Part shown: in pieces, positions 7,698 through 44,331 of the stretch
Layout: the number at the start of each line of letters is the position of its first letter
Numbering within the stretch: the first letter of the stretch is position 1
Source: Serinicoccus profundi
GTDB taxonomy: Bacteria; Actinomycetota; Actinomycetes; Actinomycetales; Dermatophilaceae
Direction of reading: 5' to 3'
Assembly: GCF_008001015.1 (NCBI RefSeq)
Contig: NZ_CP042862.1
Coordinates: 744,001-808,000 of the forward strand
Length of the DNA stretch: 64,000 nucleotides
Position numbers and translations under genes: made by a program
The notes under the pieces: generated by a model
What the model saw: the letters and a program-made list of their open reading frames with translations, nothing else
Told to the model about the DNA's origin: nothing
Database searches by the model: none

Positions 7698-7841
7698 ACC
7701 GAGCGTCGCAGATGGTTGCGTTTCCTCCCACCGAGCGTCGTAGATGGTTGCGCGGACAGCCATCTGCGGCGCTCGGTGGGTCCAGGGGCGACCATGTGCG
7801 GCGCTCGGTGGGTCCAGGAACGACCATGTGCGGCGCTCGGT
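7698..7841. repeat. Dispersed 32-bp-period repeat, cluster A (5 copies)
   Basis: The core is ACCGAGCGYCGCAGATGGTT or close variants. Forward copies start at 7698 and 7730 (32 bp apart). Reverse-complement copies end at 7777, 7809 and 7841 (32 bp apart). The second forward and first reverse copies face each other and form a 48-bp imperfect inverted repeat. The two outer reverse copies carry ATGTG in place of ATCTG. Related clusters lie at 18203, 19386 and 44253. Confidence 0.9.
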
Positions 7842-7932
7842 GGGGGTAGGCTCCTCGGCGGCCCGCCGGGCACGTCGAGCACCCGGCCACCAGCAGCTGT
7901 GGGGGCCGATCCGATGACAGAGGGAGACCCGC

Positions 7933-9273
7933 GTGGGTATGTGGAGCGTGCACGGTGACGGCACCCGGATCGCGCCGGGGGAGGTGGTCGGGCCCCGCGA
8001 GCGCCTCGCCTGGATCCCCACGATCGGGATCGGGATGCAGCACGTCGTCGCGATGTTCGGGGCGACCTTCCTCGTCCCGCTCATCACCGGCTTCCCGCCG
8101 AGCACGACCCTGCTCTTCAGCGGGCTGGGGACGGTGCTCTTCCTGCTCATCACGCGCGGTCAGGTCCCGTCCTACCTCGGCTCCAGCTTCGCTTTCCTCG
8201 CCCCCATCGCCGCCGCCCAGGCCCAGCACGGCCCGGCGGGTGCCCTCGGTGGCGTGGTCCTCGCCGGGGTCGGGCTCGCGCTGGTCGGTGCGATCGTCCA
8301 GGTCGTCGGGCACGGCTGGATCGGCCGCCTCATGCCGCCGACGGTGACCGGGGCGATCGTGGCCCTCATCGGGCTCAACCTCGCGCCCGCCGCCTGGTCC
8401 AACGTCGAGCAGGCACCGGTCACGGCCCTGGTGACGCTGGGCGCGATCCTGCTGTGCTCGGTCCTCTTCCGCGGGTTGCTCGGGCGCCTCTCGATCCTGC
8501 TCGGCGTGCTCGTGGGGTATGCCGTCGCGCTGCTGCGCGGCGAGGTCGACCTGGCGGTGGTCGCCGACGCCGGGTGGCTGGGTGCGCCGCCGCTCATGGC
8601 GCCGGAGTTCCACCTCGGCGTGGTCGGCCTCTTCCTGCCCGTCGTCCTCGTCCTGGTGGCGGAGAACATCGGGCACGTGAAGTCCGTGGCGCAGATGACG
8701 GGGGAGTCCGCGGACTCCCTGGACCACATGCTGGGGCGCACCCTCATGTCGGACGGCCTGGCGACCACCCTCGCCGGCGCGGGGGGCGGCTCCGGCACCA
8801 CGACCTACGCCGAGAACATCGGCGTGATGGCCGCGACCCGCGTCTACTCCACCGCGGCCTACTGGGTCGCGGCGCTGACCGCCGTGGCGTTGGCCTTCCT
8901 GCCGAAGTTCGGGGCCATCATCCAGACCGTCCCCGCGGGGGTGCTCGGGGGCGCGGCGACGGTGCTCTACGGCATGATCGGCGTGCTCGGCATCCGGATC
9001 TGGGTCGAGAACCGCGTGGACTTCGGCAACCCCATCAACCTCGCGACCGCGGCCGTGGCCCTCGTCGTCGGCATCGCCAACTACACGTGGAGCGCCGGGG
9101 CGCTGAGCTTCGAGGGCATCGCGCTCGGCACCGCCGCCGCGCTGCTCGTCTATCACGGCCTGCATGCCGTCAACCGGTTCACCGGGGCGGTCGACCTCGG
9201 CTCTCAGGAGCGCCCGGGGCCCGGCCCCGCCGACCCGACGGTCGGGTCCCGGCGGCCCCGGGCGGGCCGCTAG
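7933..9273 (+). CDS. Uracil/xanthine-type nucleobase permease (NCS2 family)
   Basis: A 446-residue polytopic transporter of the nucleobase:cation symporter-2 family. Visible family marks are SYLGSSFAFLAP in the early helices, the QH pair in IGMQHVVAMFGAT, GLNLAPAAW, VLVAENIGHVKSVAQMTG with the substrate-binding Glu, and GGGSGTTTYAENIGVMAATRVYS. It probably imports uracil or a purine with protons; substrate cannot be fixed by eye. The start is GTG 7933, with AGGGAG 6 nt upstream. Its position between atpD and atpC is unusual. Its TAG stop overlaps the likely -10 element of atpC. Confidence 0.9.
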   Translation: MGMWSVHGDGTRIAPGEVVGPRERLAWIPTIGIGMQHVVAMFGATFLVPLITGFPPSTTLLFSGLGTVLFLLITRGQVPSYLGSSFAFLAPIAAAQAQHGPAGALGGVVLAGVGLALVGAIVQVVGHGWIGRLMPPTVTGAIVALIGLNLAPAAWSNVEQAPVTALVTLGAILLCSVLFRGLLGRLSILLGVLVGYAVALLRGEVDLAVVADAGWLGAPPLMAPEFHLGVVGLFLPVVLVLVAENIGHVKSVAQMTGESADSLDHMLGRTLMSDGLATTLAGAGGGSGTTTYAENIGVMAATRVYSTAAYWVAALTAVALAFLPKFGAIIQTVPAGVLGGAATVLYGMIGVLGIRIWVENRVDFGNPINLATAAVALVVGIANYTWSAGALSFEGIALGTAAALLVYHGLHAVNRFTGAVDLGSQERPGPGPADPTVGSRRPRAGR

Positions 9274-9276
9274 ACT
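9271..9276 (+). promoter_or_regulatory. Probable -10 element of a separate atpC promoter
   Basis: TAGACT fits the actinobacterial -10 pattern TANNNT and includes the stop codon of the permease (9271-9273). Transcription from about 9283 would give a leader of about 26 nt containing the Shine-Dalgarno GAAGG (9296-9300) before atpC. The same hexamer precedes gatC (59273) and the cysteine desulfurase gene (49084). No clear -35 is visible. Confidence 0.5.
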
Positions 9277-9308
9277 CGGTCCTTGAACCGTCATCGAAGG
9301 GAAATCTC

Positions 9309-9590
9309 GTGAGTGCACTGCAGGTCGAGCTCGTCGCCGCGGACCGCAAGGTCTGGGAGGGTGAGGCGTCCATGGTGAGCGCGCGCAGCGTCGACGGCGA
9401 CCTGGGCATCATGCCGGGTCACACGCCGGTGCTGGCGGTGCTCGTCGAGGGGGCCGTCCGCATCCACGTGGGCGGGACGCCCCAGGAGGTCACCATCGAC
9501 GGCGGCTTCCTCTCCGTCGACGCCGACAAGGTGGTCATCGTGGCCGACCGTGTCGACGCCGGCTCGCTGACCGCCTCCGCCACGCGCTGA
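9309..9590 (+). CDS. atpC: ATP synthase F1 subunit epsilon
   Basis: A 93-residue protein made of the N-terminal beta-sandwich only (ALQVELVAADRKVWEGEASMV, GDLGIMPGHTPVLAVL, GGFLSVDADKVVIVAD). It lacks the C-terminal two-helix arm of the 130-140-residue E. coli type that inhibits ATP hydrolysis. Short epsilons are common in this phylum. GTG 9309 is chosen for GAAGG 8 nt upstream and because the protein then begins as in the family. It is separated from atpD by the permease, although its product must be made in step with the other F1 subunits. Confidence 0.93.
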   Translation: MSALQVELVAADRKVWEGEASMVSARSVDGDLGIMPGHTPVLAVLVEGAVRIHVGGTPQEVTIDGGFLSVDADKVVIVADRVDAGSLTASATR

Positions 9591-9607
9591 CCGGTGCGCC
9601 AGCGCTG

Positions 9608-10039
9608 ATGGTGGGCTACGGGTCGCTCCTCCTGGTGATCATGGCCGCGGTCGGCGGCCTGATCATCCTCGCCCTGGGGCTGCTCGCGTTCCGCATCGCC
9701 GGCGACCGGAGCAGCACGTGCCCGCCGATGCCCGCGGCATACCGTGACGAGGACGGTGCCTGGCGCCGGGGCACCCTGCGCTTCACCGAGGACCGCCTGT
9801 CCCTCAAGGGATCGGGCGGTCTTTCCGTCGGTCCGTGGATGCGGGGCAACCTCGACCTCGGGGTGGCCGGCCCCCTGGCCACCCAGGACGCCGACGCCCT
9901 CGGCGGCGCCGCCCTCATCCGCGTCCCCGTCACCTACGGCACCTCGCGCTTCGAGATCGCGCTCGGCGAGCAGCACTACACGGCGCTGCGCTCCTGGGTC
10001 GAGGCCGTCCCGCCGGGCTGGAACTCCCAGGTCGCCTGA
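9608..10039 (+). CDS. DUF2550 family membrane-anchored protein
   Basis: A 143-residue protein with one N-terminal membrane helix (about 5-29), then a soluble domain with RRGTLRFTEDRLSLKG and a C-terminal ALRSWVEAVPPGW. DUF2550 proteins sit directly after atpC in many actinobacteria; their function is unknown. It follows atpC by 17 nt and is probably co-transcribed with it. A hairpin at 10063-10126 closes the unit. Confidence 0.8.
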   Translation: MVGYGSLLLVIMAAVGGLIILALGLLAFRIAGDRSSTCPPMPAAYRDEDGAWRRGTLRFTEDRLSLKGSGGLSVGPWMRGNLDLGVAGPLATQDADALGGAALIRVPVTYGTSRFEIALGEQHYTALRSWVEAVPPGWNSQVA

Positions 10040-10062
10040 CACCGCGGCATACCCCCTGGACC

Positions 10063-10126
10063 GACCACGGCATAGCACGAGCGTCATCGGGAAGTATGCC
10101 GATGAAGGTCGGGCTATCCCGTGGTC
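10063..10126. terminator. Nested inverted repeats between convergent genes
   Basis: The outer arms GACCACGGCATAGC (10063-10076) and GCTATCCCGTGGTC (10113-10126) pair with one mismatch. The inner arms TCATCGG (10084-10090) and CCGATGA (10099-10105) pair exactly. The structure lies between the plus-strand DUF2550 gene and the minus-strand adenosyltransferase gene, so it can serve as a terminator from both sides. Confidence 0.65.
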
Positions 10127-10154
10127 ACTCCGGGCAGGCCCCGGGCCCTCGTCC

Positions 10155-10777
10155 TCAGGCCGACGGGTCCTCGCGGCCGCCGCCGGGCTTCCAGAGCACG
10201 TCGCCCTCACCGCTGCGCCCGGCGACCCGGGCGAGGATGAAGAGCAGGTCGGAGAGCCGGTTGAGGTAGGTCTGAGCGGGTTGACCCCGCCCTGCCCCTT
10301 GGCCGCACCCTCCTCGGCCGGCTGGTCGCCATACTCCGCCAGCGCGGCCCAGGTGGACCGCTCCGCCCGCCGGGCCACCGTCCGCGCCTGGTGCAGGAGC
10401 GCGGTGCCCGGGGTGCCACCGGGCAGGATGAAGGAGCGCAGCGCGGGCAGGTCGGCGTTGAAGCGGTCGCAGTCGGCCTCCAGTTCCTCCACCCAGGCGG
10501 CCTTGACCCGCAACGGTTCCCACTCATAGCTCGCGCGCAGCGGCATGCAGAGGTCCGCACCGACGTCGAAGAGGTCGTTCTGGATGCGGGCCAGCGTGTC
10601 CTGCACCTCGATCGGCAGGGCGCCGCAGGCCACGGCCACCCCGATGACGGAGTTGGTCTCGTCGGTGTCCGCGTAGGCGGCCAGGCGGGCGTCGGTCTTG
10701 GGGGTGCGTCCGTTGTCGCCGAGGGCGGTGGTGCCGTCGTCGCCGGTCCGGGTGTAGATCCGCGTCAGGTTGACCAT
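10155..10777 (-). pseudogene. PduO-type cob(I)alamin adenosyltransferase, frameshifted
   Basis: This family makes adenosylcobalamin from cob(I)alamin and ATP. The N-terminal part (MVNLTRIYTRTGDDGTT, YADTDETNSVIG) is read from ATG 10777 through NPL. The conserved C-terminal part (TYLNRLSDLLFILARV, GDVLWKPGG) continues in another frame and ends at 10155. The shift lies at about 10274-10279: the DNA reads AACCCGCTCAGACC where AAC-CCG-CTN-GCT-CAG-ACC is expected, consistent with loss of 4 nt. The frame read without correction loses the essential C-terminal helix. It could be a true mutation or a sequencing error. A CAGCAT hexamer 7 nt before the ATG suggests a leaderless start. Confidence 0.8.
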
Positions 10778-10811
10778 GCCCCGCATGCTGCCATGCGTGG
10801 CCGCCCGGCGC

Positions 10812-12338
10812 TCAGGTGACCAGGGTCGCCGCCACCCGCCGCGCGTCGCCCGCCGCCTCCAGGCCGCCGTCCGGCCCGCGCAGCGCCGCGCCGACGCCGC
10901 CGAAGTACATCGAGGACGGCGGGTGCTCGAAGCGCGTCAGGCCCGCGGCGTCCAGGCTCGCCGCGATCCCGGCATCCTCCTCGTGGTCGATCCGGGTCGA
11001 CCCGTCCTCGAGCCGGCGCGGGTGCATCCGCGGCTGGTCGACGGCGGTCTGCAGGTCCTCGCCGTGGCGGGCGAGGTGGGTGAGGACCTGCGCCAGCGCC
11101 GTGGTGATGCGGTCCGCCCCCGGCGTGCCGATCGCCAGCACCGCGCCGTCCTCGCGTCGCGCCGTCGTCGGCGCCATGTTGGAGGCGAGCCGGGTGCCGG
11201 GGGCCAGCGCGTGCAGGCCGTGCCGGTTGAGCTCCAGCTCGCCGAGGGAGTTGTTGGCGACGAGCCCGGTGCCTGCGATCGTCATCCCCGAGCCGTAGCC
11301 CGCCGACGCGGTGAGCGCGCACGCCATACCGTCCTCGTCGACCACCGACACGTGCGCGGTCGAGGGGGAGGTCGGCAGCCCGGTCGCCCCGATGTGGTGC
11401 AACGTCTGCAGCAGCTCGGCGCCTGCGGCCTCGAGGTCGTGGGCGGTGTCGATGCGGTCCAGGCGGATGTCGAGCACCTCCTTCATCACCAGCGCGGCCT
11501 GGGCCGGGTCGACCTGCCCGGTCGTGGCGCCCAGCAGCCGCAGCAGTGCGGTGAGGACCGGCCCGCCGATCGAGGGCGGGGGGTTGCAGGCGAGGTCCCA
11601 GGCCCCCAGCCGGCTGCGCAGCCCGGCGCGTACGACCGGCTGGTAGGCCTCGAGGTCGACCAGGGACAGCAGGCCGCCCCGGTCGCGCATGTCGGCGTCG
11701 ATCGCCCGCGCGACGTCACCGTGGTAGGCCGTGCCGGCGCCCTCGCGCCCGATGTGCTCCAGGGTGTCGGCGAGCACCGGGTCGACGACGTGGTGGCCGA
11801 CCTCGGGTGGGGCGCCGTCGCGGGTCAGCAGCGCCTGGGTGGCGGGGTCCCAGGCGAGGATCGTGTCGGTGACGAGCACGAGGTATGACTGCGCGGTCCG
11901 GCTGAGGGGGTAGCCCGCCCGGGCGACGTCGGCGGCCGGCTGGAGCAGCTCGGCCCAGGGCGCGCGACCGTAGCGCTGGTGCGCCCACCCCATCGCGGCC
12001 AGCATGCCGGGGGTCGCGACCGAGCCCGGCCCGACATACGTCACCATGCCGCCGCCGTAGTCCGAGGCGGCCTCGATGAGCCCGCCGCCCCGCCGGTCGG
12101 CGCTCATGCCGCGGCCGGGCATCTCGACGTTGCCGTCGATGACGATCGGGTCCTCACCCGGCACCCAGACGTTGATGAAGCACCCGCCGAGCGTGGAGAT
12201 GACCCCCGGCTCGGTCACCGTCGCCGTGAGCATCGCCGCGACGGCCGCGTCGAGGGCGGTGCCGCCCGCGTCGAGGGCGTGGGCAGCGGCCTGCGTGGCG
12301 TAGGTGTTGGGCGCGGCGATGGCAGCAGAGCGGGTCAC
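10812..12338 (-). CDS. Gamma-glutamyltransferase family protein
   Basis: A 508-residue member of the Ntn-hydrolase GGT family, whose precursors cleave themselves at a Thr that becomes the catalytic nucleophile. The likely site is the Thr in SPSTAHVSVVDEDG. The start of the large subunit has the family pattern HALDAGGTALDAAVAA and TVTEPGVISTLGGCFI. No signal peptide is evident, so a cytoplasmic role such as glutathione-like or gamma-glutamyl turnover is possible. Start GTG 12338 has CAGAAT 7 nt upstream (12351-12346), a leaderless arrangement. Substrate is unknown. Confidence 0.85.
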   Translation of the reverse strand: MTRSAAIAAPNTYATQAAAHALDAGGTALDAAVAAMLTATVTEPGVISTLGGCFINVWVPGEDPIVIDGNVEMPGRGMSADRRGGGLIEAASDYGGGMVTYVGPGSVATPGMLAAMGWAHQRYGRAPWAELLQPAADVARAGYPLSRTAQSYLVLVTDTILAWDPATQALLTRDGAPPEVGHHVVDPVLADTLEHIGREGAGTAYHGDVARAIDADMRDRGGLLSLVDLEAYQPVVRAGLRSRLGAWDLACNPPPSIGGPVLTALLRLLGATTGQVDPAQAALVMKEVLDIRLDRIDTAHDLEAAGAELLQTLHHIGATGLPTSPSTAHVSVVDEDGMACALTASAGYGSGMTIAGTGLVANNSLGELELNRHGLHALAPGTRLASNMAPTTARREDGAVLAIGTPGADRITTALAQVLTHLARHGEDLQTAVDQPRMHPRRLEDGSTRIDHEEDAGIAASLDAAGLTRFEHPPSSMYFGGVGAALRGPDGGLEAAGDARRVAATLVT

Positions 12339-12406
12339 GGGGTCGATTCTGCCGCAGCGGCCCGGCCGCGGGCCCGACCCGCGCCGCCCTCTGGCATCGT
12401 GTCCTG

Positions 12407-14062
12407 GTGATGAATGCCGACCCGCGGGCCCGCGCGGCCGTGACCTCCCGGCCCACCGTGGTGGCGCTGGCGCTCGCGGTGGGGTTGGCCGCGCTTGGCT
12501 GGGCCCTCGTGCTGCGGCACGGATTCCCGCACGGCGACGACCTGCTGCACGCCATGGCGGGTGAGGAGCCGGGTGATGCCCGCACGCTGCGCGGGTGGCT
12601 GGAGACGTGGCGCTTCGACTACGCCTACCGCAACGGGCGGGCCGCGGATGCGGTCGCCCGGCTCATCCTCCTCGGCGGCCGACCGGGCGCCCTCGTGGTC
12701 GGCGTCCTCGTCATGGTCCTCGCCGGGATCGCGACCTGGCCCTGGCTGCGGATGGCCGGACCCGGGCGGGGGCGGCGCGCGCTGTGGGGTGCACTCGGGC
12801 TCGGCGTGCCCTTCCTCGCGGTGCAGGCGCACTCGTGGCTCACGGGGGAGGGCCTGCTGTGGGTCTCCGGCCTGGCCAACTACCCGCTGGCCACCCTCGC
12901 CTTCCTCGTCGCCGGTGCGGCGGTGAGCGGTGCGTTGCCGCCGCGCCTGACCTGGGCGGTCCTGCCGGTCGTGCTGTATGCCCACATCGGCCACGAGATG
13001 TCCGCGGTGGCGACCCTCGTGGTCACCGCGCTGGCGCTCGGGCTGCGCCGACCCGGCGACGGTCGCCCCCGTGCCGCGCAGTGGGCGGCGATCCTCACCT
13101 CGGTCGTGGGCTTCGCGGTGCTCGCCACCGCACCCGGCCTGTGGCGGCGCACCGCGGAGGAGGACCTCGCGCTCCCGCTGCTCCAGGCGCTCTCCCGCAC
13201 CACCCTGCTCTTCGCCTCGCTCAGCCTCGGGTGGTGGTTGGCGCTCGGCGGGCTGGCGCTGCTCGGTGCCCGGCTGGCCGGTCGCGCGCCGCGGTGGGGG
13301 ACCGCGTCGCTCGGTGCGGCGGCCTGGCTGCTCCTGCTCCTCGCCCGCCGTCGGTGGCCGCGGATCGCCGACCTGTGCGCGGAGGCCGACACCGCCGTCC
13401 CGGCGACCCTGCTCGCGCTCGCGGTCATCGCGGCCGCCGCGGTGCTCGTGGTGAGCGTCCTCGTCCTCGTCGTCCACGCCTGGGGCGCGCTCGCGGCATA
13501 CCCCGTGCTGGCGCTGAGCCTCGCCGACGTCCTGTCGGCCGGGGTGCCGATCGTCGCCTCGGTCTGTGGGCAGCGCGCGTTCTTCCTCCCGGTGACGGCG
13601 CTCGTCCTCGCCGTGGCGTGCGCCCTGAGGCTGGTGCTCGACGCGCTCGGACGCACCGGTGACCGCGGGCAGCGGCTCGCCCGCACCCTCACCGTCCTCG
13701 CGGTGGTGGCGACCCTCGTCTCCGCTGCCGCCTACGTCACCCTCACCTCGGAGCGGGCCGCCCGCAACGCCGCCGCCTACGACACCTTCGTCACCTCGGT
13801 CGAGGAGGCCCGAGCCACGGGGGAGGGGGTGGTGGTCGCGCCCGACCTGCCCGAGGAGGGGTATGCCTACCGCCGCGCCTACTTCCTGGGCCGCTACGGC
13901 TGCGACCTCAGATACTTCTACGACCTGCCCGACGGGGTGGTCCTCACCGACGTCGAGCGTCGGGAGTCCGAGACCACCGACCGGACCACCGGGTGCGAGA
14001 CCACCTGGCAGCGGACCCTCACGCGGGCGGAGGAGGAGGGGCGGGCTCCCGGCCGGCGGTGA
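12407..14062 (+). CDS. Polytopic membrane protein of unknown function
   Basis: A 551-residue protein with about 11-12 membrane segments, a periplasmic-type loop after the first helix (HGFPHGDDLLHAMAG) and a soluble C-terminal tail of about 90 residues (from SERAARNAAAYD). This architecture resembles DUF6056-like or glycosyltransferase-C-like membrane proteins, and the neighbouring gtrA and polyprenyl glycosyltransferase genes support a cell-surface glycan role; this is inference. GTG 12407 has CATCGT 6 nt upstream, so the mRNA may be leaderless. Its last 44 nt overlap the 3' end of the convergent gtrA gene. Confidence 0.7.
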   Translation: MMNADPRARAAVTSRPTVVALALAVGLAALGWALVLRHGFPHGDDLLHAMAGEEPGDARTLRGWLETWRFDYAYRNGRAADAVARLILLGGRPGALVVGVLVMVLAGIATWPWLRMAGPGRGRRALWGALGLGVPFLAVQAHSWLTGEGLLWVSGLANYPLATLAFLVAGAAVSGALPPRLTWAVLPVVLYAHIGHEMSAVATLVVTALALGLRRPGDGRPRAAQWAAILTSVVGFAVLATAPGLWRRTAEEDLALPLLQALSRTTLLFASLSLGWWLALGGLALLGARLAGRAPRWGTASLGAAAWLLLLLARRRWPRIADLCAEADTAVPATLLALAVIAAAAVLVVSVLVLVVHAWGALAAYPVLALSLADVLSAGVPIVASVCGQRAFFLPVTALVLAVACALRLVLDALGRTGDRGQRLARTLTVLAVVATLVSAAAYVTLTSERAARNAAAYDTFVTSVEEARATGEGVVVAPDLPEEGYAYRRAYFLGRYGCDLRYFYDLPDGVVLTDVERRESETTDRTTGCETTWQRTLTRAEEEGRAPGRR

Positions 14063-14408
14063 GCACGTAGCGGGTGAGCAGGAAGGTCACCGGCACGGCG
14101 GCGATGCCCATGATGAGCGTGGCGTAGCGCTCGTCCACCCCGACCCACTCCACGAGCAGCACCGACCCGATCGTGGTGAAGGTGAGGTTGACCAGGGTGG
14201 TCAGCGGGTAGGCGAGGAAGCGCCGCCAGGTGGGGCGCACGCCGAAGGTGAACAGGCTGTTGGCGAAGAAGGAGAAGACCACCGCACCCGACCAGGCGAG
14301 CAGGTGGGCCGGGACGTACGGCATACCGAGCAGCAGCAGGCGGTAGAAGAGGTAGTAGACGGCCGTGTTGGCGACGCCGACGACGACGAAGCGCAGCAGT
14401 GCGCTCAT
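14019..14408 (-). CDS. GtrA-family membrane protein
   Basis: A 129-residue protein with four membrane helices (LLRFVVVGVANTAVYYLFYR, AHLLAWSGAVVFSFFANSLFTF, LAYPLTTLVNLTFTT, YATLIMGIAAVPVTFLLTRY), the GtrA layout. GtrA proteins are thought to flip or help transfer polyprenyl-linked sugars made by a partner glycosyltransferase. That partner is the preceding gene, whose stop overlaps this ATG by 4 nt (ATGA). The 3' end overlaps the convergent membrane-protein gene by 44 nt. Confidence 0.88.
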   Translation of the reverse strand: MSALLRFVVVGVANTAVYYLFYRLLLLGMPYVPAHLLAWSGAVVFSFFANSLFTFGVRPTWRRFLAYPLTTLVNLTFTTIGSVLLVEWVGVDERYATLIMGIAAVPVTFLLTRYVLTAGREPAPPPPPA

Positions 14409-15397: not shown

Positions 15398-15412
15398 GGC
15401 GCTCACGCTAGC

Positions 15413-16108
15413 TCAGAAGAGCCGTGCCTCCGCGTCGTCGATCCCGCGCAGCGCCTCGTAGTCGAGGGTCACGCAGCGGATGCCGCGGTCGGTCGCGAGC
15501 ACCCGGGCCTGCGGCTTGATGAGCTGGGCGGCGAAGATGCCCTGCACCGGGGCCAGGTGGGGGTCGCGGTTGAGCAGCTCGAGGTAACGGGTGAGCTGCT
15601 CGACCCCGTCGATGTCGCCGCGCCGCTTGATCTCCACGGCGACCGTGGCGCCGTCGGCGTCGCGGCACAGGATGTCGACCGGGCCGATGGCCGTGGGGTA
15701 CTCCCGGCGCAGCAGCGTCCACTGCTCCCCGAGGGTGGTGATGTGCTCGGCGAGCAGCGCCTGGAGCTGGGCCTCGACGCCGTCCTTGACCAGGCCCGGG
15801 TCGATGCCGAGGTCGTGGCTCGTGTCGGAGAGCACCTCGTGGATCTTGACCCGCAGGGTGTCCTCGCGCTTGCCGTGCGAGACCTGCCAGACCTGGGTGA
15901 CGCCCTGCTCGGCCTCCACCTCATCGGGCTCGGTCTGCGCCATCGAGCACGGCGGGGCCATCCAGTTCAGCGGCTTGTAGGACCCGCCGTCGGAGTGGAC
16001 GAGCACCGACCCGTCGGCCTTGACCATGAGCAGCCGGGTGGCGAGGGGCAGGTGGGCTTCGAGGGCTCCGTGGTAGTCCACCGAGCACCGGGCGATCACG
16101 ACACGCAC
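15413..16108 (-). CDS. nucS: Mismatch-specific endonuclease NucS/EndoMS
   Basis: A 231-residue protein with N-terminal [14 protein letters not shown] and a C-terminal nuclease domain with [12 protein letters not shown] and [17 protein letters not shown], the E-x-K type nuclease core. NucS cuts both strands at mismatches and replaces MutS/MutL in actinobacteria and some archaea; it is guided by the replication clamp. GTG 16108 is chosen because the protein then begins like known NucS and TAGGGT (16121-16116) lies 7 nt upstream. nucS often lies close to the ATP synthase genes in this phylum, as here. Confidence 0.95.
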
Positions 16109-17853: not shown

Positions 17854-17858
17854 GGGCG

Positions 17859-18188
17859 GTGCCCAGGTCCAACCGGCAGCGTCGGGGCGGCCGGCCACGG
17901 GCGTCCTCGCGAGGGTCCTCGGGGTCCGCGGGTGTCGGGGATCCGCTGCGACGGGGCGTCGGCGAGGTCCGCTACGCCGGGCAGGTCTGGGCGGTCCGGC
18001 AGGTGCGGCCCAACGACAGCGGACGTTCCTACCGCTGCCCCGGGTGCCAGCAGGAGGTCGGTGCGGACGTGGCCCACACCGTCGCCTGGCCGACCGAGGG
18101 CATGCAGCAGGCCGAGAACCGCCGCCACTGGCATACCGTCTGCTGGTCCGCGCGGGAGCGCCGCCGCCCCGGCGGCTCCTTCGCCTGA
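17859..18188 (+). CDS. Small zinc-ribbon-like actinobacterial protein
   Basis: A 109-residue protein with a basic N-terminus (PRSNRQRRGGRPR) and a conserved centre RYAGQVWAVRQVRPNDSGRSY followed by CPGC, then HTVAW, HWHTVCW and a basic tail. The Cys pair plus His and Cys could bind zinc. Similar short proteins are widespread in actinobacteria and are often labelled ATP/GTP-binding without evidence. It starts 5 nt after the dehydrogenase stop, so it is co-transcribed. The function is not known. Confidence 0.6.
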   Translation: MPRSNRQRRGGRPRASSRGSSGSAGVGDPLRRGVGEVRYAGQVWAVRQVRPNDSGRSYRCPGCQQEVGADVAHTVAWPTEGMQQAENRRHWHTVCWSARERRRPGGSFA

Positions 18189-18202
18189 CCCCACATCTCC
18201 CC

Positions 18203-18352
18203 ACCGAGCGTCGCAGATGGTTGCTCCTGCCTCCACCGAGCGTCGCAGATGGTTGCTCCTGCCTTTGACCGAGCGTCGTAGATGGTTGCTCCTGCCTCGA
18301 CCGAGCGTCGCAGATGGTTGCTCCTGCCTCGACCGAGCGTCGGAAATGGTTG
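18203..18352 (+). repeat. Dispersed 32-bp-period repeat, cluster B (5 tandem forward copies)
   Basis: Copies start at 18203, 18235, 18268, 18300 and 18332, giving steps of 32, 33, 32 and 32 bp. Each has the ACCGAGCGTCGCAGATGGTT core, with changes such as TAGATGG in the third and GGAAATGG in the fifth, plus a shared CTCCTGCCTC filler. All point the same way. The array fills the gap between the zinc-ribbon gene and the acetyltransferase gene and ends 23 nt before the latter's -10 element. Confidence 0.92.
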
Positions 18353-18386: not shown

Positions 18387-19280
18387 ATGACCATCGTCAC
18401 GGCCGACGCGGACCAGCAGGACGCCGCCCTGGCGCTCATCGTCGCCGCGCAGCGCTCGCCGGAGTCGGCGTGCGCCTACCTCGGCACCGAGGCCGACGGG
18501 GTGCGGGCAGAGCTCGACGACCTCGACACGCCCTGGCAGGAGACCCTGCGAGTCGCAGTCGACCCCTCCGGCCGAGTCGTCGGCGCCGTGCTGCACGACG
18601 TCGACCCCGAGGAGACGATGCGCAGCTGGATCCACGGCCCGTGGACTCTCGACGAGCAGATCTGGTCGGAGTATGCCGTGGCGCTCGTCCGCGCGGCCCT
18701 CGAGCAACTGCCGCCGGAGGTGGAGCAGCATGAGCTCAGCGCGGCCCCGGCGCATACCGGTATGGCGCAGCTGGCCTCCGACCTGGGCTGGCACGCCACC
18801 GGCCTGAGCATCGCCTACCAGGCCACCACCGCGACGGCACAGCGCTGGCCGGCCGATGCGCCGGACGCCCGCGTCGCGACGTCCGCCGACCTACCGGCGA
18901 TCACCGGGCTGCACGACGGCGCCTTCCCCGGCACCTACGCCACCGCCCGTCAGCTGCTCGCCGACGAGGCGCGCGCCACCCTGGTGCTGGAGCACGACGG
19001 GGAGGTGGCCGGATACGCCTCCGGCGAGATCCAGGCCGATGGTGCCGGCTATCTGGACTTCCTGGCGATCGCGCCTGGCCACCGGGGTCAGGGGCTCGCG
19101 CCGGGGCTGCTGGCCGCGATCTCACGTGCGCTGCTCGCCCGCTCCTCGCAGGGCACCGTCAACCTCGTCGTCGACGAGGTCAATGCGCCCGCGGTGGCCC
19201 TCTACGAGGGGTTCGGCTACGTCCGTGACGCCGAGCTGCTCGGCTACCGCTCGTGGCCCCAGCCGCCGGGTACGGCCTAG
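18387..19280 (+). CDS. GNAT-family N-acetyltransferase with two GNAT halves
   Basis: A 297-residue protein. The C-terminal half is a clear GNAT domain: ATSADLPAITGLHDGAFPGTY, LDFLAIAPGHRGQGLAPGLL with the acetyl-CoA binding R/Q-x-x-G-x-G/A signature, and VNAPAVALYEGFGYV. The N-terminal half (1-150) has a weaker GNAT-like layout without the binding loop. The acceptor substrate is unknown. TAGCCT (18375-18380) stands 6 nt before the ATG, so the mRNA is probably leaderless. The gene is bracketed by oppositely oriented repeat clusters. Confidence 0.85.
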   Translation: MTIVTADADQQDAALALIVAAQRSPESACAYLGTEADGVRAELDDLDTPWQETLRVAVDPSGRVVGAVLHDVDPEETMRSWIHGPWTLDEQIWSEYAVALVRAALEQLPPEVEQHELSAAPAHTGMAQLASDLGWHATGLSIAYQATTATAQRWPADAPDARVATSADLPAITGLHDGAFPGTYATARQLLADEARATLVLEHDGEVAGYASGEIQADGAGYLDFLAIAPGHRGQGLAPGLLAAISRALLARSSQGTVNLVVDEVNAPAVALYEGFGYVRDAELLGYRSWPQPPGTA

Positions 19281-19385
19281 AGCTGCCCTTCGCCTGACCA
19301 CTCCGGACGCCTTGCACCGTCCGCAGGGCTGCTCGCCGACCGGACCCTCCCTCACCGGATGGCCGCGAACGGTCGGCTGAAGCAA

Positions 19386-19563
19386 GCATCTGCGGCGCTC
19401 GGTGGGGGTGAGAGCGACCATCTGCGGCGCTCGGTGGGGGTGAGAGCGACCATCTGCGGCGCTCGGTGGGTCGCTGAGCGACCATGTGCGGCGCTCGGTG
19501 GGTGTGGGGGCGACCATCTGCGGCGCTCGGTGGGGGTGAGAGCGACCATCTGCGGCGCTCGGT
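19386..19563 (-). repeat. Dispersed 32-bp-period repeat, cluster C (6 tandem reverse copies)
   Basis: Copies of the reverse-complement core (CCATCTGCGGCGCTCGGT) end at 19403, 19435, 19467, 19499, 19531 and 19563, an exact 32-bp step each time. The first copy is shortened at its left end, and the fourth has ATGTG in place of ATCTG. The last copy runs into the stop codon of the AI-2E-family gene. The array lies between convergent genes and points opposite to cluster B. The remaining gap 19281-19385 shows nothing else recognised. Confidence 0.92.
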
Positions 19564-35078: not shown

Positions 35079-36874
<1,796 letters not shown>

Positions 36875-36885
36875 CGTGCTCCTTC

Positions 36886-38982: not shown

Positions 38983-38986
38983 AAAC

Positions 38987-41173
38987 CTACCGGGCTTCCG
39001 CGTCGGAAACCACGTGCGTCGACGGGCGCTCGTCCGCCGTCCCGGAGAGGACCGCGGTGAGCACCGTCAGGCTCGTCGCACCGGCATCGAGCGACCCGCC
39101 GTCCGCCACGTGCTGGCCGACCTCGCGGCCGGCCTCGCTGCTGAAGCGCACCCGCCAGCCCTCGACCCCCTCCGTCGGGGGAAGGCGCAGCGTGGACCGG
39201 TCGGTGCCGGCGTGCAGGAGCAGCGCCACGGCGCGGCGGTCCTCGTGGTGGAGGGTGTCGAGGACCGCGACGAGGGTGCTGCGGTGCGGGTCGTCCCACT
39301 GGTGCTCGGCGAGGAGGTGCCCGTCCTCGGCATACCACCGCAGGCGGGTGCGTCCGGGGACGGCGTCGAAGGAGGGGAACTCCGGCCCGCGCAGCAGCGC
39401 CAGCTCACGGCGCAGGGCCAGCAGCGCCCGGGTGTCCTCGAGCAGCGCGGACTGCCACGGCGCCAGCTCCCAGTCCACCCAGGTCAGCTCGGAGTCCTGG
39501 CAGTAGGCGTTGTTGTTGCCCTGCTGGGTGCGGCCCAGCTCGTCGCCGGCGACGAGCATCGGGACGCCCGGGAGCAGCAGCAGCGTGCCGAGCAGGTTGC
39601 GCATCGAGCGGCGGCGGTGGCGCAGGACGTCGGGGTCATCGGTCGGGCCCTCGTGGCCGTGGTTCCACGAGCGGTTGTCAGCGTGGCCGTCCCGGTTGTC
39701 CTCGCCGTTGGCGTGGTTGTGCCGCTCCTCGTAGGCCGTGAGGTCGGCCAGGGTGAAGCCGTCGTGGGCGGTGACGAGGGTGACCGAGGCGTTGGGGCCA
39801 CGCCCGTCGTGGGCGAAGAGGTCGGCGGAGCCGGCGATCCGGGTGGCGAGCTCGCGGACCCCGTGGCCGGCGTGCCCGTGCAGACGGCGGCCGACGTCGG
39901 CGAGCCAGAAGGTGCGGGCGGTGTCGCGAAAACGGTCGTTCCACTCCGAGAAGACGGCCGGGAACTGGCCGGTGCGCCACCCGTGGACGCCGACGTCCCA
40001 GGGCTCGGCGAGGAGCTTGACCCGGGACAGGACCGGGTCGCTCTCCAGGGCCACGTGGAAGGCGTGCTCCCGGTCGTAGGCGTCGTCGCGGCCCCGGGCC
40101 AGGGCGGGGGCGAGGTCGAAGCGGAAGCCGTCGACGTGGAACTCCTCCACCCAGTAGCGCAGGGAGTCCAGGACCATCCGTGCCACCTGCGGGTCGCGCA
40201 GGTCCAGGGTGTTGCCGCAGCCGGTGACGTCGATGTCGCGCCCGCGGTCGTCGAGCCGGTAGTAGGTCTGGTTGTCCAGCCCGCGGAAGGACAGCGTCGG
40301 GCCGTCCCAGGACGACTGCTCGGCGGTGTGGTTGTAGACCACGTCGAGGATCACCTCGATGCCTGCGCCGTGCAGCGCCCGGATCGCGCCCTTGAGCTCG
40401 TCCACGACGGCCTGCGGGTCGCTCGCTGCGGCATACCCGGCGTGCGGCGCGAAGAAGCCGAGGGAGTTGTAGCCCCAGTAGTTGCCCAGGCCGCGGCGCA
40501 CGAGCGCGGGCTCGGAGGTGAAGGCGTGCAGCGGCAGCAGCTCCAGGGAGGTGACGCCGAGCCCGGTGAGGTGGTCGAGCACCGCGGGATGCCCGAGTGC
40601 GGCATAGGTGCCGCGCAGCTCGGGCGGGACCTCCGGGTGGCGCATGGTCAGGCCGCGGACGTGCGCCTCGTAGATCACCGTGTCGCTCCACGGCACGTCG
40701 GGCAGGGTGTCCTCTCCCCAGTCGAAGACCCCGTGGTCGACCACGACGGAGCGCGAAACGTGCGGCGCTGAGTCGCGACCGTCACGGGTCTCCGGGTCGG
40801 TCCAGCCGTCCTCGCCGACCTCGTGGCCGTAGACCTCCGGGCGCCAGGTGACCTCGCCCTCGACGGCGGCGGCATACGGGTCGAGCAGCAGCTTGTCGGG
40901 GTTGTGCCGGTGGCCCTGGCCCGGGTCCCACGGCCCGTGCACCCGCAGCCCGTAGCGCGTGCCGGGCACCAGCTCGGGCACGAGATCCCACCAGATGCCG
41001 TGCGCGGTGCGGGTCAGGGGTATGCGGCGCTCGCCGAGGGGGGTCGTGAGGCAGACCTCCACCGCTGTGGCGTGCCGGGCGAGCACCGCGATCTCGGGGC
41101 CGGCGTCGGTGCTGGTCACGCCCAGGCGCGGCGGACGCTCGGTGCTGCGGCGAGGGCGGAGGTGGGCTGGCAT
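38987..41173 (-). CDS. glgX: Glycogen debranching enzyme
   Basis: A 728-residue isoamylase-type GH13 enzyme that removes alpha-1,6 branches. It has an N-terminal carbohydrate-binding domain, NYWGYNSLGFFAPHAGYA, VILDVVYNHTAE, FHVDGFRFDLAPAL (nucleophile Asp), LLAEPWDVG (acid Glu), VTAHDGFTL and NNNAYCQDSELTWVDW, typical of GlgX/TreX. ATG 41173 is chosen because TACGCT (41187-41182) lies 8 nt upstream; an upstream GTG would pass through the promoter. It is the first gene of the operon. Confidence 0.94.
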   Translation of the reverse strand: MPAHLRPRRSTERPPRLGVTSTDAGPEIAVLARHATAVEVCLTTPLGERRIPLTRTAHGIWWDLVPELVPGTRYGLRVHGPWDPGQGHRHNPDKLLLDPYAAAVEGEVTWRPEVYGHEVGEDGWTDPETRDGRDSAPHVSRSVVVDHGVFDWGEDTLPDVPWSDTVIYEAHVRGLTMRHPEVPPELRGTYAALGHPAVLDHLTGLGVTSLELLPLHAFTSEPALVRRGLGNYWGYNSLGFFAPHAGYAAASDPQAVVDELKGAIRALHGAGIEVILDVVYNHTAEQSSWDGPTLSFRGLDNQTYYRLDDRGRDIDVTGCGNTLDLRDPQVARMVLDSLRYWVEEFHVDGFRFDLAPALARGRDDAYDREHAFHVALESDPVLSRVKLLAEPWDVGVHGWRTGQFPAVFSEWNDRFRDTARTFWLADVGRRLHGHAGHGVRELATRIAGSADLFAHDGRGPNASVTLVTAHDGFTLADLTAYEERHNHANGEDNRDGHADNRSWNHGHEGPTDDPDVLRHRRRSMRNLLGTLLLLPGVPMLVAGDELGRTQQGNNNAYCQDSELTWVDWELAPWQSALLEDTRALLALRRELALLRGPEFPSFDAVPGRTRLRWYAEDGHLLAEHQWDDPHRSTLVAVLDTLHHEDRRAVALLLHAGTDRSTLRLPPTEGVEGWRVRFSSEAGREVGQHVADGGSLDAGATSLTVLTAVLSGTADERPSTHVVSDAEAR

Positions 41174-41307
41174 GAGCGCACAGCGTAGGCCCAGGACGAC
41201 CCGGTGGCCGTCGGCGACCCGCGGCAGGAGGGCAACGGGCATACTCTGCGGAGGGACGCGGGCGCGAGACGTCGCCTGCGCGCACGGCAGGAGGGGGTCC
41301 GGCGCCC

Positions 41308-42762
41308 ATGGGTGGAGTCACGAGTGGAGCTGTGGGCGAGGTCGACGACGCCTCGCCGACGTCCGAGGTCCGGGCGCAGGGGGAGGAGCTGCGCGTCAGC
41401 GTGGTCGTCCCGGTCTACAACGCGATGCCCTACCTGCAGACCCAGCTCGTCTCCCTGCTCAGCCAGGACATCGGTGCCGGGAGACACGAGGTCATCGTGG
41501 TCGACGACGGCTCGACCGACGACGGTCCGCGCGTGCTCGACGAGCTCGCTGCGGTGCACCCGCCGCTGCGGGTGGTCCACCAGGGCAACAGCGGCTGGCC
41601 GGGGATCCCGCGCAACCGTGGTCTGGAGATGGCTCGGGGTCGTTACGTCTTCTTCGCCGACGCGGACGACGAGATGGGTCCCGAGGCGCTGCGGCGCCTC
41701 GCCGACTTCGCCGACGAGCACGGCAGCGACGTCGTCGTGCCGCGGTCGGTGGGGGTCGGGCGGTTCGCCGCCACGCCCTTCAGAGACACGCGGGTCGATG
41801 CCGACCTCGAGGCGGTCTTCCGCACCCTCACGCCGCAGAAGCTCTTCCGACGCTCCTTCCTGGAGCGTGAGGGGCTGACCTTCCCGGAGGAGAAGGTGCG
41901 CCTGGAGGACGGCATGTTCCTCGCGCGGGCCTATCTCCTGGCCGGTCGGGTGTCCTACCTCGGCGGCTACGACTTCTACCGCCTCATCTCCCGCGAGGAC
42001 GGCCAGAACATCAGCTCGCAGACCCTCGACCCGGACGGCTACACGTGGTCGGTGGGGGAGGTCAGCCGGCTGGTGCGCGCCCACGACCCCGATCCCGATC
42101 GTGCCGACCGGATCGTGCTGGACCTCTACCGGCGCAAGTGTCTGAAGTTCTACCAACCTGCCCGGTGGAGCGTGATGCCCCGGGCGCGGCGCGCGAGGTT
42201 CCTGGCGGCCCACGGCAGGTTCATCGAGGAGCACATCCGGCCCGAGCTCGAGGCTCAGCTCGCCGAGCCGTTCCGGACGCGCTCCCGGCTCGTGCGCGCC
42301 GGCGACGCCGCCGCCCTGTCGCGGGTGGCCCGCGCCGGGGTGGACCACCCCCTCCTCGCCGCCCGGGTGGTGCAGGCGGCCTGGCGGCCACGGGGAGGTC
42401 TGCGGCTCGTGGTCGAGATCCACGGTGCCCTGGCCGACGGGACCGCGCGCGCGGTCGTCGTGGAGCTCGCCGTGCGGGGCGGCGGGTCCACGACGACGAC
42501 GGTCGAGCTCGGCCGGGCGCGCCAGGTCGAGCAGCCCGAGGGGCGCCCCGGTGTGTCCGTCGTGGAGGCGGTCGTGCCGCGTCGCCTCCTCGACCTCACC
42601 GCCGGGTCGACCCTCGACCTCTCCGTCCGCACCGCCGAGGGCACGACGGAGAAGGTGCGCCTGGCCGCGCCACTCGTGTCGGTCCTTCCCCCGCCCCGCC
42701 ACGGGCTGCGCGTCTACAGCACGGTCAAGGGCAACCTCAGCGTGGACCGGCCCGTGGGCTGA
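41308..42762 (+). CDS. Family 2 glycosyltransferase with C-terminal extension
   Basis: A 484-residue protein with a GT-A domain at about 28-250 (VSVVVPVYNAMPYLQTQL, VIVVDDGSTDD, NSGWPGIPRNRGLEMARG, FFADADDEM with the DxD metal site, KLFRRSFL, LEDGMF). The later part is helical and then beta-rich, resembling wall-teichoic or capsule sugar transferases. No membrane helix is present. It is divergent from glgX. TACTCT (41242-41247) is the likely -10, and AGGAGGGGG (41289-41297) the ribosome site. Confidence 0.85.
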   Translation: MGGVTSGAVGEVDDASPTSEVRAQGEELRVSVVVPVYNAMPYLQTQLVSLLSQDIGAGRHEVIVVDDGSTDDGPRVLDELAAVHPPLRVVHQGNSGWPGIPRNRGLEMARGRYVFFADADDEMGPEALRRLADFADEHGSDVVVPRSVGVGRFAATPFRDTRVDADLEAVFRTLTPQKLFRRSFLEREGLTFPEEKVRLEDGMFLARAYLLAGRVSYLGGYDFYRLISREDGQNISSQTLDPDGYTWSVGEVSRLVRAHDPDPDRADRIVLDLYRRKCLKFYQPARWSVMPRARRARFLAAHGRFIEEHIRPELEAQLAEPFRTRSRLVRAGDAAALSRVARAGVDHPLLAARVVQAAWRPRGGLRLVVEIHGALADGTARAVVVELAVRGGGSTTTTVELGRARQVEQPEGRPGVSVVEAVVPRRLLDLTAGSTLDLSVRTAEGTTEKVRLAAPLVSVLPPPRHGLRVYSTVKGNLSVDRPVG

Positions 42763-42865
42763 GCGTGGGCCGGCCCGAGGCCTGACGCGAGGGCTGACCC
42801 GTGGGCCGGCCGGTGGGGCGAGAGCCGACGGCGCGCACCGGGAGCCGAGCCGTTACGTTGGGGGT

Positions 42866-43441
42866 ATGAGTGATCCGACCTCGCTGCCCAACTTCCCCCC
42901 GCCCCCGCAGGAGCACCCGCTCACTGGTCGCGTCCTGGACGCGCTGCAGGACCTGCAGATGCAGCCCAACCTGGACAAGGCCGGCGACGTCGCCTTCGAG
43001 GTGCAGGGCCAGAAGCTCTTCGTCAAGGTGATCGAGGGCGAGCAGTTCGACATCATGCGCGTCTTCGGCCAGTGGCAGATCGCGAGCAGCGTGCCGGAGG
43101 AGCTGGCGACCCGGCTCAACGGCTGCAACGACGTGACGCTCGGGGTCAACCTCGTCAAGGCCGGGATCGCCAGCGGCAACCTCGTGCTGGCCGTCGAGCA
43201 GATCATCGCCCGCAGCGAGCCGCCGAAGGCGAAGGTCCAGATCGCGACCGGACTCCTGCTGCAGGCGCTGCAGCTGTGGCACCGCAACGTCATCGCCAAG
43301 GCGCAGGTCGAGCGCGGCGAGCAGCCCGACCTGCCCGAGGGTGCGCCCGAGGGGACCGAGGTCGGCCCGTGGCTGAGCATCGGCACCCAGGCGCAGCAGC
43401 GGGGCGCCGACGGGGGCGGTGCGCCGGAGGGACAGGCGTGA
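42866..43441 (+). CDS. YbjN-domain protein
   Basis: A 191-residue protein. Residues 20-145 form a YbjN-like/secretion-chaperone-like fold (KAGDVAFEVQGQKLFVKVIEG, LNGCNDVTLGVNLVKAGIASGNLVLAVEQI). The tail is Gly/Glu-rich. The molecular role is not known. TACGTT (42854-42859) is 6 nt before ATG 42866, so it is probably leaderless. Its stop overlaps the next start by 4 nt. Confidence 0.7.
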   Translation: MSDPTSLPNFPPPPQEHPLTGRVLDALQDLQMQPNLDKAGDVAFEVQGQKLFVKVIEGEQFDIMRVFGQWQIASSVPEELATRLNGCNDVTLGVNLVKAGIASGNLVLAVEQIIARSEPPKAKVQIATGLLLQALQLWHRNVIAKAQVERGEQPDLPEGAPEGTEVGPWLSIGTQAQQRGADGGGAPEGQA

Positions 43442-44238
43442 GCCGCACGGTCGCCACCGCGAGCGACCTCGTCCGCATCGAGGTCGAGGACGGCATCGCG
43501 ACCATCCGCATCGACCGACCCAAGATGAACCCGCTCTCCATCGAGGTGCAGGACGCCCTCGGCGAGGCCGCCGGGATCGTCGGCGCGGACGACGAGGTCG
43601 CTGCGGTCGTGCTCTACGGCGGGGAGAAGGTCTTCGCCGCCGGCGCGGACATCAAGGAGATGCAGGACATGTCCTACACCGACATGGTCCGCCGCGCACC
43701 GGTCATCCAGGAGTGCTTCAGCGCCGTCGCGCGCATCCCCAAGCCGGTCGTCGCCGCGATCGAGGGGTATGCCCTCGGCGCCGGCAACGAGCTCGCGCTC
43801 TGCGCCGACTTCCGGGTCGCCGCGTCCGACGCCAAGCTCGGGCAGCCGGAGATCCTGCTCGGGGTCATCCCCGGTGCCGGTGGGAGCCAGCGGCTGGCCC
43901 GGCTGGTCGGGGTGTCCAAGGCCAAGGACCTCGTCTTCACCGGTCGGATGGTCGAAGCCGCAGAGGCGTTGGAGATGGGCCTGGTCGACCAGGTCTGCGA
44001 GCCCGGTGAGGCGCACGCGACCGCGCTGGAGATGGTGCGGCGCTACGTCGGCGGCCCGGCGTTCGCGCTGCGCGCGGCCAAGGAGGCCATCGACCGCGGG
44101 CTGGACGGCGACCTCGAGACCGGCCTGGCCATCGAGGCCATGCAGTTCGCCGGCGTCTTCGCCACGACGGACCGCGAGATCGGCATGCGCTCCTTCGTGG
44201 AGCAGGGTCCCGGGAAGGCGGACTTCACCGGCCGCTGA
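43438..44238 (+). CDS. Enoyl-CoA hydratase
   Basis: A 266-residue crotonase. Oxyanion-hole and active-site regions are visible: FAAGADIKEMQDM, PVVAAIEGYALGAGNELALCADFRVA, and LGQPEILLGVIPGAGGSQRLARLVG with the catalytic Glu. It hydrates trans-2-enoyl-CoA in beta-oxidation. GTG 43438 overlaps the YbjN gene stop (GTGA). A repeat-based 21-bp hairpin follows 14 nt after the stop and probably terminates the unit. Confidence 0.93.
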   Translation: MSRTVATASDLVRIEVEDGIATIRIDRPKMNPLSIEVQDALGEAAGIVGADDEVAAVVLYGGEKVFAAGADIKEMQDMSYTDMVRRAPVIQECFSAVARIPKPVVAAIEGYALGAGNELALCADFRVAASDAKLGQPEILLGVIPGAGGSQRLARLVGVSKAKDLVFTGRMVEAAEALEMGLVDQVCEPGEAHATALEMVRRYVGGPAFALRAAKEAIDRGLDGDLETGLAIEAMQFAGVFATTDREIGMRSFVEQGPGKADFTGR

Positions 44239-44252
44239 GCCGACGGCATACC

Positions 44253-44331
44253 ACCGAGCGCCGCAGATGGTTGTCCTGCAACCATCTGCGGCGCTCGGTC
44301 GTGCGTGGGGCGACCATCTGCGGCGCTCGGT
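44253..44331. repeat. Dispersed 32-bp-period repeat, cluster D (3 copies, one perfect hairpin)
   Basis: A forward copy at 44253-44273 and a reverse copy at 44279-44299 are exact 21-bp reverse complements with a 5-nt loop TCCTG. A further reverse copy ends at 44331, exactly 32 bp after the previous one. The hairpin lies just after the enoyl-CoA hydratase stop and has the shape of a strong terminator. Confidence 0.92.

What the first reader, a model, noticed from the sequence alone, without database searches (positions are those of the whole stretch)
7698..44331. Dispersed intergenic repeat with an almost invariant 32-bp period, 19 copies in four clusters
A core of about 21 bp (ACCGAGCGYCGCAGATGGTT) occurs at 7698-7841, 18203-18352, 19386-19563 and 44253-44331. 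Within every cluster same-direction neighbours are 32 bp apart; one step of 33 is the only exception. All copies are in gaps between genes, mostly just after stop codons. 32 bp is about three turns of DNA, so copies lie on the same face, as expected for a protein-bound array. Spread without any transposase suggests a REP- or MITE-like element. I do not recognise it as a named family.
Basis: seen in the sequence. Interest (0 to 1): 0.85.

Follow-up and report, generated by a model that had tools for sequence, protein, structure and literature searches.

The report
Phased repeat arrays with species dialects
A bacterial genome and several of its relatives carry many short DNA repeats set about three helix turns apart, mostly between genes and spelled differently from species to species, which looks like a landing strip for a DNA-binding protein not yet identified.

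Summary
In detail: 19 copies, 0.01 expected. The genome has 368. The 20-bp core is ACCGRGCGYCGYNNRTGGTY plus a 12-bp spacer. Tandem pairs occur at least 5 times in 13 of 31 genus genomes, and in 1 of 53 genera searched in the family.

New findings:
(1) Steps are 32 bp between genes, but 33 bp in 14 of 18 steps of arrays lying inside genes in the gene's direction.
(2) Neighbouring arrays face each other in 17 of 21 pairs in this genome.
(3) Short head-to-head junctions have gaps of 7-10 or 18-20 bp, one helix turn apart (24 junctions).
(4) Core centres follow species dialects; here they are nearly uniform while spacers are not.
(5) Occupied and empty sites exist in orthologous genes.

No Y1 transposase (Pfam PF01797, the RAYT class) was found in 31 genomes, and three cores tested do not fold. 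I reject REP/RAYT and favour phased binding sites for an unidentified DNA-binding protein that evolves with its sites. No protein was identified; the function, perhaps a border or roadblock, is inferred.

The parts
7698..7749 (+). two direct copies, 32-bp step
7758..7841 (-). three copies, 32-bp steps; 8-bp head-to-head junction with the + copies
18203..18351 (+). five copies, steps 32,33,32,32; the last unit (centre AAA; CCA in L029) has a counterpart in L029, L030, L031 and L034 and ends 35 bp before the GNAT start codon in all five
18387..19280 (+). GNAT-family acetyltransferase gene bracketed by the two facing arrays; absent, with both arrays, from this place in L032, L033 and L035
19384..19563 (-). 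six copies, five steps of 32; touches the stop codon of the minus gene
44253..44272 (+). one copy; with the next copy it forms a 22-bp perfect hairpin
44280..44331 (-). two copies, 32-bp step; 7-bp head-to-head junction

Best explanation
These are tandem arrays of binding sites for an unidentified sequence-specific DNA-binding protein of this genus (Serinicoccus and close kin). Each 20-bp core has outer blocks ACCGR.CG and TGGT and a variable centre, and would bind one protein unit. The 32-bp step (three turns) sets neighbours on one face of the helix, and short head-to-head junctions keep a one-turn rule. Arrays sit mostly in gaps between genes, often right after stop codons, and neighbouring arrays usually face each other across 0 to 2.3 kb. 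The centre differs between species and is nearly uniform in this genome, as expected if sites follow the changing specificity of their protein. Likely role: a boundary, roadblock or architecture element at gene borders. Shown: sequence, period, junction gaps, orientation rule, dialects, occupied and empty sites. Inferred: that a protein binds, and what it does. Not shown: how copies reach new places.
For: In this genome 13 of 20 core positions carry 1.8-2.0 bits, mid-spacer positions mostly 0.2-0.6. Spacer length is 12 bp in 408 of 426 (eight genomes, five gene-internal loci left out). Adjacent spacers show 481 substitutions and 23 length differences; array-free orthologous gaps show 378 substitutions and 77 indels, so about 98 would be expected. 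All 24 junctions of up to 25 bp have gaps of 7-10 or 18-20 bp; in this genome alone n=10, p=0.001. Gene-direction arrays inside genes have 33-bp steps in 14 of 18 cases, against 2 of 143 between genes. Facing orientation in 17 of 21 neighbour pairs within 3 kb, p about 1e-7, and in 44 of 50 over ten genomes, orthologous loci counted more than once. Between arrays of this genome the two-base centre is 0.84 identical while spacers are 0.54, no higher than spacers between arrays of other genomes (0.46-0.58). No clear direction bias to transcription in tandem gaps, 14 against 10 strand segments, which argues for a DNA-level role.
Against: No binding protein was found or tested. Junction data include orthologous loci, and six longer junctions (35-98 bp) were not part of the test; a looser scan adds one at 17 bp to a poor copy. 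The 33-bp rule inside genes is not strict: one MFS-like gene has 33,32 here and 32,32 in G021, and the matching array in G043 has 32,33. Within-array spacer similarity (0.81-0.95) shows that arrays also grow by local duplication, which by itself copies the period; the period could come from one founder. Spacers between arrays (0.54) are above the composition-only level (0.37), so some common descent or preference is present. Spacers at orthologous arrays are hardly more alike than random ones (best 0.66 against 0.62), so content turns over fast. The facing rule has exceptions: 3 of 50 divergent and 3 of 50 same direction, and 4 of 21 in this genome.
Confidence: 0.52

Rival explanations
1. A non-autonomous mobile repeat whose enzyme is not of the Y1 class or has been lost. 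The phased sites would be transposase or recombinase binding sites, as at the multi-site ends of Tn7- or Mu-type elements (recalled), and facing arrays would be element ends.
For: Occupied and empty sites in orthologous CobQ- and NadE-like genes; facing arrays bracket segments; the GNAT gene and both arrays are missing together in three relatives; patchy presence in G004 and G016 beside array-free relatives.
Against: The bracketed genes differ from place to place and most read as ordinary host genes (names by reading); arrays vary by local duplication; no Y1 transposase (other transposase classes were not searched); no target duplication established; no exact tandem match in this dialect among viral contigs.
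Confidence: 0.26
2. Uptake-sequence-like drive: the cores are recognised by a DNA-uptake receptor and homogenised by transformation, giving species dialects as in Neisseriaceae.
For: Species-specific centres with a shared outer motif, and homogenisation without the spacers; DUS dialects are conserved within species (PMC3630211, abstract read); ComEC-family gene in 29 of 31 genomes.
Against: ComEC is as common in array-free genomes; DUS occur in thousands of copies (abstract) and, as recalled, singly or in pairs, not in 32-bp arrays; 0 of 62 copies in genes in the sample.
Confidence: 0.08
3. RNA-level element: transcription terminator or RNA structure at gene ends.
For: 34 of 55 array ends facing a stop codon lie within 15 bp of it; convergent gaps over-represented, 18 of 44 against 36 of 233 gaps, p=0.0003; the 44253-44299 pair is a perfect hairpin, z -10.6; outside this genome head-to-head arms share the centre in 10 of 21 cases against 18 of 96 for arms of different clusters.
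Against: Three single cores and two single-direction arrays fold no better than shuffles (cores z 0.20 to 1.00; arrays z 1.52 and -0.63); whole-arm identity of head-to-head pairs equals the control, 15.8 against 15.6 of 20; no clear direction bias in tandem gaps; arrays also in divergent gaps, 7 of 44.
Confidence: 0.08
4. Neutral satellite: one founder unit spread by chance events and multiplied by slippage; no function, no bound protein.
For: Arrays fill the space next to stop codons and rarely touch start codons; high within-array similarity; some in-gene arrays keep 32 bp.
Against: Core conserved while spacers diverge; shortage of spacer length changes; one-turn junction rule; facing rule.
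Confidence: 0.06

Closest known systems
REP / BIME elements with RAYT (GTAG and CGTC superfamilies, PMC3733652, abstract and passages read)
   Same: 20-40 bp, extragenic, downstream of genes, tandem and convergent gaps, some copies in genes, neighbouring units in opposite orientation
   Different: tested cores are not hairpins, no GTAG or CGTC end tag, direct 32-bp arrays, no Y1 transposase found in the genus
DNA uptake sequence dialects of Neisseriaceae (PMC3630211, abstract read)
   Same: species dialects of a short motif with a shared part, conserved within a species
   Different: phased arrays, hundreds rather than thousands of copies, rarely inside genes; no link to uptake known
Rickettsia palindromic elements (PMC10969869, passage read)
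   Same: in-frame insertion in protein genes
   Different: RPEs are about 150 bp and each encodes a conserved peptide; here 20-bp units
Eukaryotic satellites and convergent CTCF sites (recalled)
   Same: concerted change with fixed monomer length; facing orientation of bracketing sites
   Different: bacterial, dispersed in many small arrays, no looping shown

Membership tests
REP/RAYT | palindromic core able to form a hairpin | tested here: not met
   three cores of different spelling: z 0.46, 1.00, 0.20
REP/RAYT | GTAG or CGTC tag at one end of the unit | tested here: not met
   core begins ACCG and ends TGGTY
REP/RAYT | Y1 tyrosine transposase in the genome | tested here: not met
   PF01797: 0 of 31 genomes; controls ring in 5 of 14. 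CGTC REPs lack a dedicated transposase (PMC3733652), so this alone does not exclude
REP/RAYT | extragenic, near gene ends | tested here: met
MITE | terminal inverted repeats and target-site duplication | tested here: inconclusive
   facing arrays could be inverted ends; a 13-bp direct repeat flanks the + array and the GNAT gene but not the - array
DNA uptake sequence | species dialect of a short motif | tested here: met
DNA uptake sequence | promotes DNA uptake | not testable with these tools
   needs a transformation assay
Rickettsia palindromic element | palindromic element of about 150 bp encoding a conserved peptide | tested here: not met
   20-bp cores that do not fold
Known RNA family | match to an Rfam model | tested here: not met
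   0 matches at gathering score in the window

The most novel reading that the evidence does not exclude
A bacterial 'phased satellite': a chromosome-wide set of facing arrays on one face of the helix, read by a fast-evolving DNA-binding protein whose specificity and sites change together, so that each species speaks its own dialect; facing pairs close off short segments, often single genes, as polar barriers, the bacterial counterpart of convergent insulator sites.
Probability: 0.2. Interest if true: 0.92.

Novelty: new variant of a known kind. Interest (0 to 1): 0.72.

Why it matters
It is a natural experiment on helical phasing (32 bp between genes, mostly 33 bp in gene-direction arrays inside genes, one-turn junctions) and on concerted change of hundreds of dispersed bacterial sites without a transposase found so far. 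If a protein reads them, it would be a bacterial case of a binding protein and its genome-wide sites evolving together, and the facing-pair rule would point to a barrier or insulator role.

Tried and rejected
REP/RAYT: no Y1 gene in 31 genomes, no hairpin in three cores. Terminator: no clear direction bias in tandem gaps, no folding of two single-direction arrays. Hairpin co-variation of head-to-head arms: whole-arm identity equals the control; about 8 of its 31 rows are a core scored against its own reverse complement, an artefact of allowing 4 mismatches, and they stay in the quoted means. Promoter role: of 33 array ends within 70 bp of a start codon (several orthologous), 10 of 21 same-direction ones have a TANNNT motif 6-15 nt before the start and these end 33-50 bp from it; 8 of 12 opposite-direction ones have it 6-9 nt before the start and come as close as 22 bp. 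The motif lies outside the core, so arrays seem to stop short of promoters. Mobile gene cassette: fits the GNAT locus; other bracketed genes read as host genes. Viral origin: no exact tandem match in this dialect in viral contigs. Competence: ComEC does not separate array-bearing from array-free genomes. Replication-strand bias: not tested; GC skew of the sampled stretches was too flat to place the terminus. Literature: the titles and abstract starts listed (capped lists; one search found no paper) describe no such arrays in this genus; one search searched pieces of the core as text and the 20 titles listed of 29 are unrelated.
Full report
OBSERVATION. The core ACCGAGCGYCGCAGATGGTT occurs 19 times in the window against 0.01 expected. 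Of 13 same-direction steps 12 are 32 bp and one is 33. In the whole genome (one contig of 3.48 Mb) a slightly looser pattern has 368 matches against 2 for the reversed control. I read 52 clusters with 229 copies in the window and in stretches of this genome, 40 of the clusters from stretches chosen at arrays. Same-direction steps in clusters that do not overlap a called gene are 32 bp in 140 of 146, 33 in five and 40 in one. Three of the five 33s belong to an in-frame array at the start of a HisI/HisE-like gene that my gene caller started too late, which leaves 2 of 143.

ORGANISM AND RANGE. A window protein finds Serinicoccus and Ornithinimicrobium records at 75-87% identity. Contig lengths tie G039 to S. 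chungangensis, G017 to S. sediminis and G043 to an uncultured Serinicoccus. Two units at 32 bp in this dialect are found in 10 of 31 genus genomes. In the order, 21 of 396 genomes match: G000 with 246 and G040 of the same genus with 154; the other 19 have one 2-mismatch match each, and reversed controls show similar single matches. With mostly the outer blocks fixed, 11 of 186 family genomes match, all in one of 53 genera. With a still looser form 13 of 31 genus genomes have 5 or more matches and 3 have one; reversed controls are 0-2. In a CobQ tree of 22 genomes (25 of 31 had a match), nine array-bearing genomes form one clade with 100/100 support. G004 and G016 bear arrays in another group (84/90) beside array-free G041 and G002; G010, drawn as negative in that tree, has 5 matches by the looser pattern. 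I cannot separate transfer from loss.

ANATOMY. The consensus in this clade is ACCGRGCGYCGYNNRTGGTY followed by a 12-bp, C-rich spacer; in this genome 13 of 20 core positions carry 1.8-2.0 bits and mid-spacer positions mostly 0.2-0.6. G004 has another dialect, mostly ACCGRCCGC, a variable part and TGGTT, with 65 of 66 steps at 32 bp. Three cores and two single-direction arrays fold no better than shuffles; the head-to-head pair at 44253-44299 is a perfect hairpin. The window has no Rfam match.

PERIOD AND PHASE. Spacers are 12 bp in 408 of 426 over eight genomes; five loci with arrays inside genes (L046, L054, L060, L065, L067) were left out of that count. Adjacent spacers (280 pairs) differ by 481 substitutions and 23 lengths; array-free orthologous gaps gave 378 substitutions for 77 indels, so about 98 would be expected. 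Where + and - copies meet within 25 bp, the gap is 7-10 or 18-20 bp in all 24 junctions; in this genome alone (10 junctions) p=0.001 against a uniform spread. Some junctions in the other genomes are orthologous, and six longer ones (35-98 bp) were not tested. A looser scan shows one further junction of 17 bp to a poor copy. Arrays inside genes in the gene's direction: the CobQ-like gene has steps 33,33,33 here and four of four 33 in relatives, the HisI/HisE-like start 33,33,33, a lipoyl-domain gene 33,33, an MFS-like gene 33,32 here and 32,32 in G021, and the matching array in G043 32,33; in all 14 of 18 steps are 33. Arrays against the gene's direction are mostly 32; in the NadE-like gene three units make 96 bp, which also keeps the frame. 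Gene names in this paragraph are my reading of the sequences.

PLACE. In 400 kb of stretches placed at round positions, 0 of 43 copies lie in genes, 0 of 62 with the window, although 86% is coding. Of the 52 clusters 19 are in tandem gaps, 18 in convergent gaps, 7 in divergent gaps and 8 overlap a gene. Convergent gaps are over-represented (18 of 44 against 36 of 233 gaps, p=0.0003; divergent gaps show no difference, p=0.54). Of 55 array ends facing a stop codon 34 are within 15 bp; of 33 facing a start codon 3 are. In tandem gaps direction does not clearly follow transcription (14 strand segments with, 10 against).

FACING PAIRS. Neighbouring arrays within 3 kb are + then - in 17 of 21 cases in this genome (p about 1e-7 if direction were random). 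Over ten genomes it is 44 of 50, but orthologous loci count more than once and some stretches in the other genomes were widened because two arrays were listed close together. The segments between are 7 bp to 2.3 kb and hold no gene, one gene or a few. In the window the 18203 and 19384 arrays bracket a GNAT gene; four related loci have the same gene with both arrays, three others lack the gene and both arrays at that place. Other bracketed genes include an SDR dehydrogenase (family search) and, by my reading, HemE- and YbaK-like genes (the YbaK-like one lies between arrays of the rare outward order).

EVOLUTION. Inside orthologous genes both occupied and empty sites exist. In CobQ three of 22 genomes have three or four units, two have one degenerate unit, one has a possible remnant and 16 have none that I recognise. 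In NadE two of ten have the array. Of 82 arrays read in other genomes 51 could be placed by their flanks on stretches of this genome, and 46 of these meet an array there; this is inflated because most stretches of this genome that hold arrays were chosen at arrays. At those sites the other genomes have centres GAA, GGA, GTG, CTG and others, this genome mainly AGA; over all, AGA is 184 of 229 here. Between arrays of this genome the two-base centre is 0.84 identical and the spacer 0.54; in five other genomes the centre is 0.00-0.54 and the spacer 0.46-0.58; composition alone gives 0.34-0.43 for spacers. So the centre became uniform here without the spacers. Copying of whole arrays would have made both uniform; core-only copying, or selection by a recogniser of changed specificity, would not. 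Spacers at orthologous arrays are only slightly more alike than random ones (best 0.66 against 0.62): places last, contents turn over.

READING. The fixed step, the one-turn junction rule, the shortage of spacer length changes, the facing rule and the dialects are best explained by phased binding sites of a protein that changes its specificity between species. That a protein binds is inferred; I found none. The Y1 transposase that goes with RAYT systems was not found in 31 genomes (other transposase classes were not searched), and REP hairpins and tags are absent from the cores tested, so this is not filed under REP, although its places resemble those given for REPs in PMC3733652 (abstract and passages read). 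CGTC REPs are said there to lack a dedicated transposase, so lack of the enzyme alone would not exclude REPs. The dialects resemble those of uptake sequences (PMC3630211, abstract read) and the in-frame insertions resemble Rickettsia palindromic elements (PMC10969869, passage read); in what I read of them, neither has phased arrays.

LIMITS. About 22% of the genome was read; place lists of genome searches were capped. Gene calls come from my own codon-usage script, not a standard caller. How new places are seeded is unexplained.

Noticed in passing
L034:1694-1915, L029:1693-1885, L030:1756-1926: After atpD, where the window has its first array, three relatives carry a different repeat of about 22 bp (CGTGCTGACCGCGCGTCCGGTG and variants), about two helix turns (seen in the sequence).
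   Followed up: no
window 44350-44443: Two copies of a 42-nt repeat, 52 bp apart, with GGGGAGGATG ... ATCCTCCCC arms.
   Followed up: no
window 7601-7679: Two 19-nt repeats holding the palindrome CCCGTCCCGGACGGG and a 15-bp inverted repeat, terminator-like, between atpD and the first array.
   Followed up: no
window 18178-18190 and 19287-19299: A 13-bp direct repeat of the end of the upstream gene flanks the + array and GNAT gene; it looks longer in L030. It suggests that the segment was inserted.
   Followed up: partly
L060:4458-5130: A lipoyl-domain (E2-like, name by reading) gene holds an in-frame array and stops just after it; the following domain is open in another frame, so the gene looks split at the array in this genome, or the assembly has an error.
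   Followed up: partly
L081:5377-5688, L130:2023-2328, L077:2649-2954: The same small YkoF-like gene (name by reading) lies 40-42 bp from an array in three genomes of two different dialects.
   Followed up: no
L207:1908-1991, L046:4906-4990, L153:576-660: The same MFS-like gene carries an array in two genomes (L046, L207), and L153 has an array at the matching place in a third; steps differ (33,32; 32,32; 32,33).
   Followed up: partly
window 7933-9273: A uracil-permease-like gene follows atpD; in L033 a gene without a match in the window lies there and L035 has an extra one, so the place after atpD seems to accept insertions.
   Followed up: no
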